The position numbers and the translations under genes were made by a program. Source: Naasia sp. SYSU D00057 (lineage in GTDB: Bacteria; Actinomycetota; Actinomycetes; Actinomycetales; Microbacteriaceae). From it: a stretch of DNA of 64,000 bases. Shown here one piece after another: positions 5,774-55,654 of this stretch; positions within the stretch are counted from its first letter, which is position 1; the number at the start of each line of letters is the position of its first letter. The notes under the pieces are model-generated. The model saw only the letters and a list, made by a program, of their open reading frames with translations, searched no databases and was not told the DNA's origin. The stretch lies in contig NZ_JAFMSZ010000001.1 in NCBI RefSeq assembly GCF_017916505.1, positions 1,054,001 through 1,118,000 of the forward strand, written 5' to 3'.

Positions 5774-5802
5774 TTGTGACCCTTCCGAGGCAGGCGTAGC
5801 GT
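5774..5802 (+). promoter_or_regulatory. Candidate promoter for the riboswitch-TetR transcript
   Basis: TTGTGA (5774-5779) and TAGCGT (5797-5802) are 17 bases apart, giving a predicted start near 5809, about 60 bases before the riboswitch. Sequence match only. Confidence 0.35.
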
Positions 5803-5865
5803 GACGAGCCTCCGAGGGGATCGGTGGTCGCGACCCGGCTCAGATCCCCCCGAAGAATCCGACAT

Positions 5866-5948
5866 CACTCACCGAAACGGCAAACCCGGCGTGAGCCGGG
5901 GACGCAAAGCTACGGGACCTCCGCGGGAGGTTCGCCGGGCCACCGAAA
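5866..5948 (+). promoter_or_regulatory. Cyclic-di-GMP-I riboswitch (GEMM-I)
   Basis: The invariant GEMM-I core is present. GGCAAACC (5879-5886) is followed by a stem capped by a GTGA (GNRA) tetraloop (5885-5900), then GGGACGCAAAGC (5899-5910). The P3 hairpin ACCTCC-GCG-GGAGGT spans 5917-5931, and the 3' consensus GCCGGGCCACCGAA closes it. The base equivalent to Vc2 G20 (5879) is G, which favours c-di-GMP over cGAMP. The 3' strand of P3, GGGAGGT (5925-5931), can instead pair over 7 bp with ACCTCCC (5952-5958), which abuts the TTG start at 5959. This is a plausible expression platform acting on translation initiation. Direction of control is not certain. Confidence 0.9.
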
Positions 5949-5958
5949 GAGACCTCCC

Positions 5959-6678
5959 TTGCACAATCTGCGCGCACACATCCTCACCGCCGCATACCCC
6001 CTCTTCGCCGAGCGCGGGATCGATGACGTCACCGAGGAGGACATCCGTGAAGCGGCACACGTCAGTCAGCAGGAGCTGATCGCTGCCTTCCCGTCCAAGA
6101 GCGCGATCGCCGCGGCGTGCATGATCCAGCGGGAGCGCGAGTGGACCATCGCGGCCGCCGAGAAGGCCGCACGGGCCCGCGGCGCGACGCCGGAGGCGCG
6201 CCTGCTGTCGCTGTTCGACGTGCTCGAGGAGTGGTTCCAGCGCGACGACGAGGAGGGGAAGACGTTCCTCGACGCGCTCGTCAACCTCTCCCGCGACAGC
6301 CGGATCGGCCGCCCCGACGCGGAGCACCTTGCGAAGATCCGGGCGACCATCGCCGGGATGGCCCGCGAGGCCGGCCTGCGTGATCCGGACGCCTTCGCGC
6401 TGACCTTCCACGTGCTGATCAAGGGCTGCGTCCTCAGCGCTCTCGAGGGCGACACCATCGCCGGAGTCCGCGCCCGCGACATGGGCCGCGAGTTGATCGC
6501 GGGCCACCGGCGCGACGCCCTCGCCGCCGAGTCCGCGCTGCAGCCGGGGACCACCTGGTTCGGCGATCCGTCGTTCGACTTCGACGACGGTCTCCCCCGC
6601 GGCGCTGCGTCCTCGTCTGCCGCCGTGCTCGACTGGTACGACGACATCGAGCTCGGCCGGGAGCAGCAGGCCGACTGA
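5959..6678 (+). CDS. TetR/AcrR-family regulator under c-di-GMP riboswitch control
   Basis: A 239-residue protein. The N-terminal helix-turn-helix region reads LFAERGIDDVTEEDIREAA then HVSQQELIAAFPSKSAI, the TetR pattern with a weak F-x-S-K start of helix 4. An effector-binding helical domain follows to about residue 185, then an acidic tail rich in Asp, Glu and Ser. The frame is open through the riboswitch, but TTG 5959 places the start directly before the HTH. It is preceded by the purine run GAAAGAG (5945-5951). The downstream diguanylate cyclase operon is convergent, ending 36 bases away. Targets are unknown. Confidence 0.85.
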   Translation: MHNLRAHILTAAYPLFAERGIDDVTEEDIREAAHVSQQELIAAFPSKSAIAAACMIQREREWTIAAAEKAARARGATPEARLLSLFDVLEEWFQRDDEEGKTFLDALVNLSRDSRIGRPDAEHLAKIRATIAGMAREAGLRDPDAFALTFHVLIKGCVLSALEGDTIAGVRARDMGRELIAGHRRDALAAESALQPGTTWFGDPSFDFDDGLPRGAASSSAAVLDWYDDIELGREQQAD

Positions 6679-6714
6679 CCGCTCCGGCGACGCGCCCTGC
6701 GCCTCGCCGGCGGG

Positions 6715-8118
6715 CTACACGAGCTCCGCCGGCGACGGCTCGACGATACGGATCCCGTCCCTGCCCTCGCGCTTCGCGGCGTACATCGCGGCGTCCGCGG
6801 CGGCGACCAGACCGTCGGCGGACAGGAACTCCTCGCCCGACGGGTGCAGAGCGGCGACGCCGATGCTCGCGGTCACCCCGACGCCGGGCGGCATGTCCGC
6901 GAGAGGGGCGCGGACCGCCCCGGCGAGGCGCTCCGCGATCGCTCGCGCGGTGCGCGGGTTCGCTCCGCGGCAGATGACCATGAACTCGTCGCCGCCGTAC
7001 CGGCCGATGGTGTCGCTGCGCCGCACGACCTGCGACAGCCGCTGCGCCACCTCCGCGAGGACCCGGTCGCCGACGGCGTGGCCCAGCTCGTCGTTGATCG
7101 CCTTGAATCCGTCGAGGTCGACGAAGATGAGGGCGACCGCCCGTCGCTCAGCGCGGGCCTCCGCCAGCGCCTCAACCAGCCGCCCGCGCAGCAGGGCGCG
7201 GTTCGGCAGCCCGGTCAGCTCGTCCTGGAGCGCCAGTTCCCGCAGCGTCTCCTGCAGCGCGATGCGAGTCAGCGCCTGGCCCGCGAGCCGGCACAGGGAC
7301 GCCTGCAGGTCGAGCTCCTCCCGAGTGAGCTGCCGCGGCCGGCCGAAGAAGCAGGTGAGCACCCCCGCGGCCTTGCCCTCCTCCCGCACCAGCGTCGCGC
7401 TGAGCGCCTCGACGCGGGCGCGGCGCAGCGGAGCGGCGAGGTGCGGGAAGGAGGCCTCCACCTCGGCGGGATCGCTCAGGACCAGCTCGTCGTCCCCGCG
7501 GAGGACGCGGAGCTCCGGCCCGTCCCGGTCGAGCAGCGCGTCCGCGCCGAGCGGGTGGCTGCCGCCGGCGATCCCCAGCTCGCGGTTCTCGAGGAGCAGG
7601 ACGGCGCTCTGGGCGGCGTCGAACGCCCGCCCGGCGGCATCCGCGAGGGCGTCCGCCACCCCCTGCCTCGTCACCGTGTCGGCGAACGCGGTCGCGGCCG
7701 CCTGCAGCATCCGCACGCCCGACTCGGACCGCTCCGCCGCACGGCGGGCCTGCAGCAGCTCACGCTCGTAGTCGCGTCGCTGGGTCGCCTTCATCACCGC
7801 GATGTGCACGGGACCATCCGGGACCGCGGCGACAGCGTTCATCAGCACCGTCAGGGAGCCGCCGTCCGCGCGCCGCAGCTCGAGTGCGAGCTCGTGCACG
7901 CTGCCCTCGAGCCGCAGCACCGGCAGGAAGCGGGTCTCCACGAATAGCCGTCCCGCAGCGGTGAGCAGCGAGTCGAACCGCTGCCCCTCGACCTCGTCTC
8001 GGCGATGGCCCGTCCACGCGAGGAAGGTGCGGTTGGCGCGCTGGACGATTCCGCCGCCGTCGGTGAGCAGCAGGCCGCACGCGGCGTGCTCGTAGAGCTC
8101 CCCGGGATCAGCGGCCAT
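6715..8118 (-). CDS. Diguanylate cyclase with PAS, GAF and GGDEF domains
   Basis: A 467-residue soluble sensor. An N-terminal PAS domain spans about residues 5-110, followed by a short coiled coil (115-135), a GAF-like domain (about 140-290) and a GGDEF domain (about 298-460). The active site is an intact GGDEF at 375-379, with RRSD at 366-369 forming the RxxD inhibitory I-site exactly five residues upstream. It should convert two GTP to c-di-GMP and be product-inhibited. No EAL or HD-GYP domain is present. It follows the RsbQ-like hydrolase by 11 bases in one operon, which suggests that the hydrolase product or the hydrolase itself acts through the PAS domain. Confidence 0.95.
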   Translation of the reverse strand: MAADPGELYEHAACGLLLTDGGGIVQRANRTFLAWTGHRRDEVEGQRFDSLLTAAGRLFVETRFLPVLRLEGSVHELALELRRADGGSLTVLMNAVAAVPDGPVHIAVMKATQRRDYERELLQARRAAERSESGVRMLQAAATAFADTVTRQGVADALADAAGRAFDAAQSAVLLLENRELGIAGGSHPLGADALLDRDGPELRVLRGDDELVLSDPAEVEASFPHLAAPLRRARVEALSATLVREEGKAAGVLTCFFGRPRQLTREELDLQASLCRLAGQALTRIALQETLRELALQDELTGLPNRALLRGRLVEALAEARAERRAVALIFVDLDGFKAINDELGHAVGDRVLAEVAQRLSQVVRRSDTIGRYGGDEFMVICRGANPRTARAIAERLAGAVRAPLADMPPGVGVTASIGVAALHPSGEEFLSADGLVAAADAAMYAAKREGRDGIRIVEPSPAELV

Positions 8119-8129
8119 GTCCGCGCTCC

Positions 8130-8954
8130 TCACGAAAGGAACGCCCGGATGGCCTCGGTCAGCTTCCCGGGCTCGGACAGGTTGGGCGTGTGGCCGGTCG
8201 CGTCGAGCAGGGTGAACGCGCTGCCGGCGATCCGCTCGTGCACGTACTCGCCGACGCTCGTCGGGGCGATCGCGTCCTCGCGCGTCTGGATGACGAGGGT
8301 CGGCACGGTGACCTCCTCGAGGTCCCGGCGGTTGTCGGACAGGAACGTGACCCGGGCGAAGTGGCCGGCGATCTCCGGATCTGTGCGGCAGAAGCTCTCC
8401 GTCAGCTCCTCGCCGAGCTCCGGCCGGTCGGCGTTGCCCGTGATGATGGGCGCGATGGCCGACGACCAGCCCAGGTAGTTCGCGTCGAGGGTGTCGAGCA
8501 GGCCTTCGATGTCGGTGCGGGAGAACCCGCCCCGGTAGTCCCCGTCGTCGATGTAGCGGGGCGACGGGCCGACGAGCACCAGGGCGCCGAACCGGGAGGG
8601 GTCGCGGATGGCCGCGAGCACGCCCATCATCGCGCTGACCGAGTGGCCGACGTACACCACGTCCTGCAGGTCGAGCGCCTCGATGATCTCGAGGATGTCG
8701 TCCGCGTAGCCGTGCAGCGTGTCGTACTTGCGCCGGTCGTAGGCATCGAGCTGCGAGCCCCCGGCGCCGACGTGATCGAAGAGCACGACCCGGTGGTCCT
8801 CGGCGAAGCCGGGGACGACGTGCCGCCACATCTCCTGACTGCACCCGAATCCGTGGGCGAAGAGCATCGGTCGCGCTCCTGCGGGACCCAGCACCGTGAC
8901 GTTGTTGCGCGCCAGGACGTCGGCCTCGACGGCAGTGGTTTCCTGCACCTTCAC
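8130..8954 (-). CDS. RsbQ-like alpha/beta hydrolase (signal-module hydrolase)
   Basis: A 274-residue alpha/beta hydrolase closest in appearance to Bacillus RsbQ. The nucleophile elbow is GHSVS (Ser105), with Asp227 in REDAIAP and His255 in GHTPNLSEP. RsbQ-specific strings include AHGFGCSQEMWRHV, DHVGAGGS and GPSPRYIDD. In B. subtilis, RsbQ activates the PAS-PP2C phosphatase RsbP under energy stress; here the partner gene 11 bases downstream is PAS-GAF-GGDEF. The same fold includes plant KAI2/D14 receptors. The GTG at 8954 is the first start; a second GTG at 8948 has a better-placed GAGGGG. Confidence 0.92.
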   Translation of the reverse strand: MKVQETTAVEADVLARNNVTVLGPAGARPMLFAHGFGCSQEMWRHVVPGFAEDHRVVLFDHVGAGGSQLDAYDRRKYDTLHGYADDILEIIEALDLQDVVYVGHSVSAMMGVLAAIRDPSRFGALVLVGPSPRYIDDGDYRGGFSRTDIEGLLDTLDANYLGWSSAIAPIITGNADRPELGEELTESFCRTDPEIAGHFARVTFLSDNRRDLEEVTVPTLVIQTREDAIAPTSVGEYVHERIAGSAFTLLDATGHTPNLSEPGKLTEAIRAFLS

Positions 8955-55465: not shown

Positions 55466-55504
55466 GATTCGTGCCCTTTCGTAGAGGAAAAGAGGGCACG
55501 GGAT

Positions 55505-55607
55505 TCCTTGAGATGCCTCCCTGCGCTGGCATGATCCAGATCAGGTTCGACGGTCGAAGCTTGGAGAAGCTTCCTCTCAGCCCGGCTCACCGGACTCCCG
55601 TGTCGGC
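55505..55607 (-). promoter_or_regulatory. TPP (thiamine pyrophosphate) riboswitch
   Basis: The reverse strand shows the THI-box signature in order: ACACGGGAGTCCGG, CTGAGAGGAAG, then a variable P3 hairpin with AAGCTTCTCCAAGCTT, then ACCTGATCTGGATCATGCC and AGCGCAGGGAGGCAT. All core helices P1, P2, P4 and P5 can form. It lies directly before the YkoE gene and should turn the ECF operon off when TPP is plentiful. Confidence 0.96.
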
Positions 55608-55654
55608 TCGATTCTAGTGCGCGCGCCGGCGCAAAGGCTGCGCAGCCCCCGAGG

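What the first reader, a model, noticed from the sequence alone, without database searches (positions are those of the whole stretch)
5774..8954. Candidate self-contained c-di-GMP signalling island: RsbQ-like hydrolase, PAS-GAF-GGDEF cyclase, GEMM-I riboswitch and TetR regulator
Within 3.2 kb there is a module that could make c-di-GMP (intact GGDEF with I-site), a hydrolase of the RsbQ type that normally feeds a PAS domain, and, on the facing strand, a c-di-GMP-I riboswitch controlling a transcription factor. Sensing, second-messenger synthesis and RNA readout appear linked by position. Seen: the domains, motifs and riboswitch core. Known: RsbQ activates PAS-PP2C RsbP in Bacillus. Inferred: that the output here is c-di-GMP read locally by the riboswitch and passed on to the TetR regulon.
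Basis: partly seen in the sequence, partly recalled or inferred. Interest (0 to 1): 0.82.

Follow-up and report, generated by a model that had tools for sequence, protein, structure and literature searches.

The report
Possible one-island c-di-GMP signalling circuit
In this actinobacterium the only recognisable enzyme that makes the signal molecule c-di-GMP lies next to the only RNA switch of the common type for it, which sits in front of a regulator gene, so one 3-kilobase island may hold a complete private signalling line.

Summary
Window 5870-5948 (+) is a c-di-GMP-I-type riboswitch; a TetR gene starts 10 nt later. Facing it is a two-gene operon: an RsbQ-type hydrolase and a PAS-GAF-GGDEF protein with intact active site and I-site. 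The four-part convergent island recurs in 4 of 51 hydrolase-bearing genomes (299 family genomes searched; the window's is one of the 4), in two genera. The hydrolase-cyclase pair usually has no riboswitch near, and Naasia aerilata keeps riboswitch-TetR without the pair.

New is the genome-wide picture. The own genome (3.36 Mb, listed 100% complete) has one GGDEF match, one c-di-GMP-I riboswitch match, and no EAL, HD_5 or PilZ match. Its relative G068 gives the same. Four other congeners have neither riboswitch, hydrolase nor GGDEF. So no other recognised cyclase could feed this riboswitch. The parts are known kinds (RsbQ-PAS-GGDEF was described in 2011); I did not find the wiring in the searches made.

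Open: ON or OFF, what the hydrolase senses, what TetR regulates. In two relatives the riboswitch-controlled protein is TetR-like but lacks the DNA-binding domain.

The parts
5774..5807 (+). promoter-like TTGTGA-17-TAGCGT (read by eye), with a 15-nt block (5793-5807) identical in three Naasia-group genomes
   Evidence: sequence; block identical in window, G068 and N. aerilata; one exact copy in the window, looser matches at the chance rate
5870..5948 (+). c-di-GMP-I-type riboswitch aptamer
   Evidence: RF03167 63 bits, RF01051 64.6 bits; 5 of 14 consensus pairs show changes on both sides among 23 family aptamers
5949..5961 (+). 10 nt between aptamer and start codon, plus the TTG start codon
   Evidence: inferred start codons lie 10-14 nt after the aptamer in the 7 TetR/TetR-like leaders
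5959..6678 (+). TetR-family regulator, 239 aa
   Evidence: PF00440 E 3e-9; full-length relatives 61, 40 and 40% identical
6715..8118 (-). PAS-GAF-GGDEF diguanylate cyclase, 467 aa; GGDEF match at 6757-7233, the only one in the genome
8130..8954 (-). RsbQ/KAI2-type alpha/beta hydrolase, 274 aa, upstream gene of the cyclase operon
   Evidence: (1wom E 6.3e-85); match in 51 of 299 family genomes at E<=1e-50

Best explanation
The island is a compact c-di-GMP circuit. An RsbQ-type hydrolase binds or processes an unknown small molecule and contacts the N-terminal PAS domain of its operon partner. That contact changes the activity of the PAS-GAF-GGDEF diguanylate cyclase, which is limited by its I-site. 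The c-di-GMP made is bound by the aptamer in the leader of the facing tetR mRNA and changes translation of TetR, because the start codon lies 10 nt past the aptamer. TetR then sets its regulon. In this genome and in G068 no other recognised GGDEF cyclase, EAL or HD_5 phosphodiesterase or PilZ receptor was found, so this may be the whole c-di-GMP economy of the cell. Shown by sequence: the parts, their order, their recurrence, the single GGDEF and the single c-di-GMP-I riboswitch. Inferred: hydrolase-PAS contact (from B. subtilis), c-di-GMP as ligand, translational control and its direction, and the TetR output.
For: Parts. Single GGDEF match in G000 and in G068; 0 EAL, 0 PilZ, 0 HD_5 in both; one RF03167 and one RF01051 match each. 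All-or-none in the 6 congeners sampled: 2 have riboswitch, hydrolase and GGDEF, 4 have none of the three. Same convergent four-part order in G068, G134 and G187. The island cyclases fall on one side of a branch of the 43-row cyclase tree (0 of 500 label shuffles as low; support of that branch only 34). Riboswitch genomes with GGDEF 17 of 17 against 136 of 282. 14 of 23 other family aptamers examined lie within about 3.5 kb of a GGDEF hit. At 52 of 55 relative hydrolase loci a gene with similarity to the cyclase lies beside it. Inferred start codons 10-14 nt after the aptamer in 7 of 7 TetR/TetR-like leaders.
Against: The riboswitch is found at only 4 of 56 hydrolase places (some flanks cut by contig ends). 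N. aerilata has riboswitch-TetR with no pair there and three GGDEF matches elsewhere. G134 and G187 carry a second riboswitch-TetR with no GGDEF in 5.8-7.4 kb on either side. By genus the riboswitch-GGDEF association is only p 0.056. A P1 stem covering the ribosome site showed no covariation above mismatched pairs. Of 7 leaders only the window's changes start-site accessibility clearly when the aptamer is forced, and the window's leader folds no better than shuffles (z 0.55). No ligand binding, cyclase activity or TetR target is tested. Receptors other than PilZ proteins and riboswitches were not surveyed, and the class-II riboswitch search was uninformative.
Confidence: 0.68

Rival explanations
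1. The hydrolase-cyclase pair is an ordinary free-standing RsbQ-PAS-GGDEF module, and its place beside a riboswitch-TetR gene is a neighbourhood kept by shared descent. The two do not form a dedicated circuit.
For: No riboswitch at 52 of 56 hydrolase places. N. aerilata keeps riboswitch-TetR in the same gene order without the pair. G134 and G187 have a second, unlinked riboswitch-TetR.
Against: In G000 and G068 no other GGDEF match exists, so coupling follows if the riboswitch binds c-di-GMP at all. The same convergent order occurs in two genera with different flanking genes.
Confidence: 0.2
2. The aptamer has changed ligand specificity (cmscan files it under Rfam's c-di-GMP-I-GGC family), so it reads another cyclic dinucleotide or signal and not this cyclase's product.
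For: RF03167 is the family that cmscan kept over the related ones. Rare variants of this class sense c-AMP-GMP (PMC7266159, passages).
Against: RF01051, ordinary c-di-GMP-I, scores 64.6 bits, well over its cut-off of 35. At the column where the RF03167 consensus shows G, all 23 aligned aptamers, the window's included, have A (A37); that this place marks the GGC variant is recalled. Riboswitch genomes all carry GGDEF.
Confidence: 0.1
3. TetR itself binds c-di-GMP, as LtmA does in mycobacteria, and is the real receptor; the riboswitch only tunes its amount.
For: TetR-type c-di-GMP receptors exist (LtmA, with HpoR; PMC12564702, passages).
Against: No sequence sign of nucleotide binding was looked for or found; a dedicated aptamer lies in the leader.
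Confidence: 0.08

Closest known systems
RsbQ-PAS bipartite module with diguanylate cyclase output (PLoS One 2011;6:e25418, PMC3183031; section 6, section 11 part 1 and passages seen)
   Same: Hydrolase gene directly upstream of a gene whose N-terminal PAS is joined to GGDEF; the paper reports 45 RsbQ-PAS pairs with phosphatase, histidine kinase or cyclase outputs
   Different: Here a GAF lies between PAS and GGDEF and the operon faces a riboswitch-TetR gene; the word riboswitch does not occur in that paper's main text. The position of RsbP Y59 reads R63 here under a constant offset
c-di-GMP-I (GEMM-I) riboswitch, Rfam RF01051 / RF03167
   Same: The aptamer matches both models above cut-off
   Different: No P1 in the consensus of the 23 family aptamers; start codons follow the aptamer by 10-14 nt in the TetR set
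TetR-type c-di-GMP regulators LtmA/HpoR of mycobacteria (PMC12564702, passages)
   Same: A TetR regulator as output of c-di-GMP
   Different: There the protein binds the nucleotide; here the mRNA leader is the predicted receptor

Membership tests
c-di-GMP-I riboswitch (RF01051/RF03167) | score above the curated cut-off | tested here: met
   63 bits RF03167 (cut-off 59), 64.6 bits RF01051 (cut-off 35):
c-di-GMP-I riboswitch (RF01051/RF03167) | binds c-di-GMP | not testable with these tools
   needs in-line probing; only indirect genome association
c-di-GMP-I-GGC variant (RF03167) | G at the RF03167 consensus place after GACGC (that this names the variant is recalled) | tested here: not met
   A in the window and in 23 of 23 aligned aptamers, the window's included
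RsbQ-PAS module | RsbQ homologue encoded immediately upstream of an N-terminal PAS protein | tested here: met
   8130-8954 and 6715-8118, 11 nt apart
RsbQ-PAS module | distinctive PAS residues of PMC3183031, read at a constant offset of +4 (no alignment with RsbP was run) | tested here: inconclusive
   C14, L17, L52, F59, P66, E76 agree with C10, L13, L48, F55, P62, E72; R57, V60, R63, T90 differ from Q53, C56, Y59, P86 (protein, paper)
RsbQ-PAS module | hydrolase contacts PAS and changes output activity | not testable with these tools
   reported for B. subtilis RsbQ-RsbP
diguanylate cyclase | GGDEF domain with intact GG(D/E)EF | tested here: met
   PF00990 147 bits; GGDEF and the I-site RxxD read
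diguanylate cyclase | makes c-di-GMP | not testable with these tools
   needs an enzyme assay
TetR family | N-terminal TetR HTH above cut-off | tested here: met
   PF00440 36.9 bits, cut-off 24

The most novel reading that the evidence does not exclude
A minimal one-island second-messenger economy: a cell whose entire c-di-GMP system is one hydrolase-gated cyclase and one RNA receptor acting on one regulator, with no dedicated phosphodiesterase, gained or lost as a block within a genus. In Planctomonas-type relatives it is rewired to a TetR-like protein without a DNA-binding domain that may act as a trap or partner for a second riboswitch-controlled TetR.
Probability: 0.35. Interest if true: 0.8.

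Novelty: new variant of a known kind. Interest (0 to 1): 0.6.

Why it matters
c-di-GMP networks often hold many cyclases and receptors, so signal specificity is hard to test. A genome with one recognisable cyclase, one recognised receptor and no recognised degrading enzyme would give a clean system. It could show what an RsbQ-type (KAI2/D14 kin) hydrolase senses, since the TetR leader is a ready-made readout, and how c-di-GMP is turned off without EAL or HD-GYP proteins.

Tried and rejected
A P1 stem that hides the ribosome site: 5' pyrimidines and 3' purines can pair, but matched leaders pair no better than mismatched ones (observed 207.5, shuffled mean 204.2, 41% as high). An alternative pairing GGGAGGU/ACCUCCC that would hide the start site until ligand stabilises P3 appears in the window's fold; forcing the aptamer raises the mean unpaired probability from 0.22 to 0.64 in the window but by 0.07 or less in the other 6 leaders, so I do not claim it as a conserved mechanism.

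Class-II c-di-GMP riboswitch (RF01786): no match in 8 genomes, but nothing rang in the controls either, so this is uninformative. Integration at a tRNA: tRNA-Gly lies upstream in the window and in N. aerilata, also where the cyclase pair is absent, so it explains nothing. The best luciferase-like hits in the four island-free congeners are 45-48% identical and lack the window's other neighbours, so I could not show an empty site there.

Rows dropped: two weak riboswitch hits (G065 27 bits, G121 28.1 bits) were left out of the alignments and of the neighbour count; statistics with and without them are. L025 was left out of A3 but is in A4 and. The window and N. aerilata are not among the 23 aptamers. 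In 3 of the 14 near cases (L033, L046b, L048) the nearest listed domain piece scores below zero, but another GGDEF hit lies in the same locus. In one search, 55 hydrolase loci were taken and 54 gave a downstream ORF, 43 of them with GG(D/E)EF and 41 with the I-site pattern; the automatic choice took a wrong frame for L027 (corrected) and probably for L123; L132 gave none. Rows without GG(D/E)EF or outside 430-515 aa were left out of the tree (43 rows kept). The TetR scan found 113 relatives and kept 80; only those 80 were scanned for the riboswitch.

Literature: 9 searches, of open-licence papers only. One search was useless (32,065 papers, mostly on another GGC). In some searches only 12 of 102, 12 of 288, 12 of 25 and 10 of 302 papers were listed, and 'tetr' also matched words such as tetraloop. 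Two 2017 papers on riboswitch variants were looked up and are not held. One search found nothing on the binding bases.
Full report
What is there. A contig of its same-genus relative G068 has the length of one of Naasia sp. SYSU D00948 (3203106), so the window is from a Naasia-group Microbacteriaceae. Cmscan of the whole window finds a c-di-GMP-I-GGC riboswitch at 5870-5948 (+), 63 bits; the ordinary c-di-GMP-I model gives 64.6 bits. A TTG start codon (inferred) follows by 10 nt and opens a 239-aa TetR protein. On the other strand, 36 nt past its stop, ends a 467-aa PAS-GAF-GGDEF protein whose active site and I-site are intact. Its operon partner, 11 nt upstream, is a hydrolase whose best solved relative is RsbQ.

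Is the linkage conserved? I searched 299 genomes of the family. RF03167 was found in 17 of 299 (two of them weak, 27-28 bits), the hydrolase in 51 of 299 at E<=1e-50 and GGDEF in 153 of 299. Of the 56 hydrolase places in those 51 genomes, a covariance model built from 23 family aptamers finds the riboswitch at 4: window, G068, G134, G187, at 80-93 bits; the next best is 13.7 bits, E 0.38. Some flanks are cut by contig ends. At all 4 the order is the same: riboswitch-TetR facing cyclase-hydrolase. The cyclases of the four islands fall on one side of a branch in a 43-row tree (0 of 500 label shuffles as low), but that branch has support of only 34. So the four-part island is real and recurrent but a minority arrangement: at 52 of 55 relative loci the hydrolase has a neighbour similar to the cyclase, and at 52 of 56 places there is no riboswitch.

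Whole-genome context. G000 and G068 each have exactly one GGDEF match, the island's, no EAL, no PilZ, no HD_5, and one riboswitch by both models. These searches rang in 8, 6, 5 and 4 of 14 control genomes. Of the 8 genomes given, only G187 had an EAL match. Four more genomes of the genus (G132, G185, G232, G273) have no GGDEF, EAL, PilZ, HD_5, RF03167 or hydrolase match. Thus in the 6 sampled congeners riboswitch, hydrolase and GGDEF are all or none; N. aerilata, not in that sample, is an exception of another kind (below). Riboswitch genomes all have GGDEF: 17 of 17 against 136 of 282 (p 1e-5), or 15 of 15 against 138 of 284 without the two weak hits (p 4.5e-5); by genus, 9 of 9 against 52 of 76, p 0.056. 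Species are not independent, so the genus figure is the safer one. Of 23 other family aptamers with wide flanks, 14 lie within about 3.5 kb of a GGDEF hit.

What speaks against a fixed unit. A scan of the collection of 84,980 species for the TetR found 113 relatives and kept the best 80; 4 of these 80 carry the riboswitch: G068, N. aerilata, G134, G187. In N. aerilata the neighbourhood is syntenic with the window (ClpP, trigger factor, tRNA-Pro, tRNA-Gly, TetR, luciferase-like gene and onward), but the cyclase-hydrolase pair is missing between TetR and the luciferase-like gene, and three GGDEF matches lie elsewhere, two of them partial. The riboswitch-TetR part therefore also stands without the pair. 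The N. aerilata TetR scores 21.8 bits on TetR_N, under the cut-off of 24. In G134 and G187 a full-length TetR with riboswitch lies elsewhere, while the island's riboswitch-controlled protein aligns with TetR but lacks most of the HTH region. Pfam finds no TetR_N in it; its model (mean pLDDT 65.7, C-terminal helices better) shows one short unsure helix and then helices from residue 22 on; its weak best fold matches are mostly TetR proteins, none at E<=0.001.

How it may work. From PMC3183031 (section 6 and section 11 part 1): in B. subtilis, RsbQ contacts the PAS domain, and its active site is needed for signalling; 45 RsbQ-PAS pairs had phosphatase, kinase or cyclase outputs. I infer the same front end here. 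The read-out is inferred to be translational, because inferred start codons lie 10-14 nt after the aptamer in all 7 TetR-type leaders, a space too short for a terminator hairpin (no terminator scan was run). In the two full-length Planctomonas-type copies an earlier in-frame ATG overlaps the aptamer's end; I took the one that fits the other TetR starts. Direction is not settled: the window's fold hints at ON (0.22 to 0.64 unpaired when the aptamer is forced), the other 6 leaders change by 0.07 or less, and a P1 test gave nothing. A promoter-like TTGTGA-17-TAGCGT, read by eye, with a 15-nt block identical in three Naasia-group genomes precedes the leader.

Known or new. RsbQ-PAS-GGDEF pairs are in print. 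The riboswitch family is in Rfam; of the three papers found that name c-di-GMP-I-GGC, two only list it among models (passages) and the third, PMC11124144, I saw in the listing only. I found no paper on a c-di-GMP riboswitch facing a sensor-cyclase operon or controlling this TetR; the searches were made, of open-licence papers only, several with capped lists. I rate it a new variant of a known kind: known parts, wiring not found in print, and an unusually small recognisable c-di-GMP set.

Noticed in passing
L032:5368-6435, L035:5391-6557, L041:6509-7864, L044:5170-6312, L046:5710-7044: Other Microbacteriaceae c-di-GMP-I riboswitches precede proteins with a GAF match, three of the five with a GDSL-hydrolase match as well, over cut-off only in L046; four of these five loci also hold a GGDEF hit. 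Perhaps another hydrolase-plus-sensor theme under c-di-GMP control.
   Followed up: partly
L029:6002-6655 (+), L031:7222-7905 (-): Riboswitch-controlled TetR-like proteins that lack the DNA-binding domain, in two Planctomonas-type genomes that also hold a full riboswitch-TetR elsewhere.
   Followed up: partly
L043:6532-6750 (-) and L045: c-di-GMP-I riboswitch directly before a Flp/Fap pilin gene (Pfam match for L043; L045 by likeness), an expected type of c-di-GMP output.
   Followed up: no
L134:9916-10720: Naasia aerilata keeps riboswitch-TetR but lacks the cyclase-hydrolase pair in otherwise conserved gene order; two of its three GGDEF matches elsewhere are partial.
   Followed up: partly
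5793-5807: 15-nt block GGCGTAGCGTGACGA identical upstream of three Naasia-group leaders: promoter, operator or both.
   Followed up: partly
L136:9800-10060: Planctomonas psychrotolerans TetR (50% identical) has no riboswitch match in its locus.
   Followed up: no
55501-55611: TPP riboswitch on the minus strand, 56.4 bits.
   Followed up: no
L120, L121, L124, L125, L127-L130: A set of hydrolase partners of 586-624 aa with a PAS-like start, 6 of 8 without a GG(D/E)EF motif: possibly another output.
   Followed up: no
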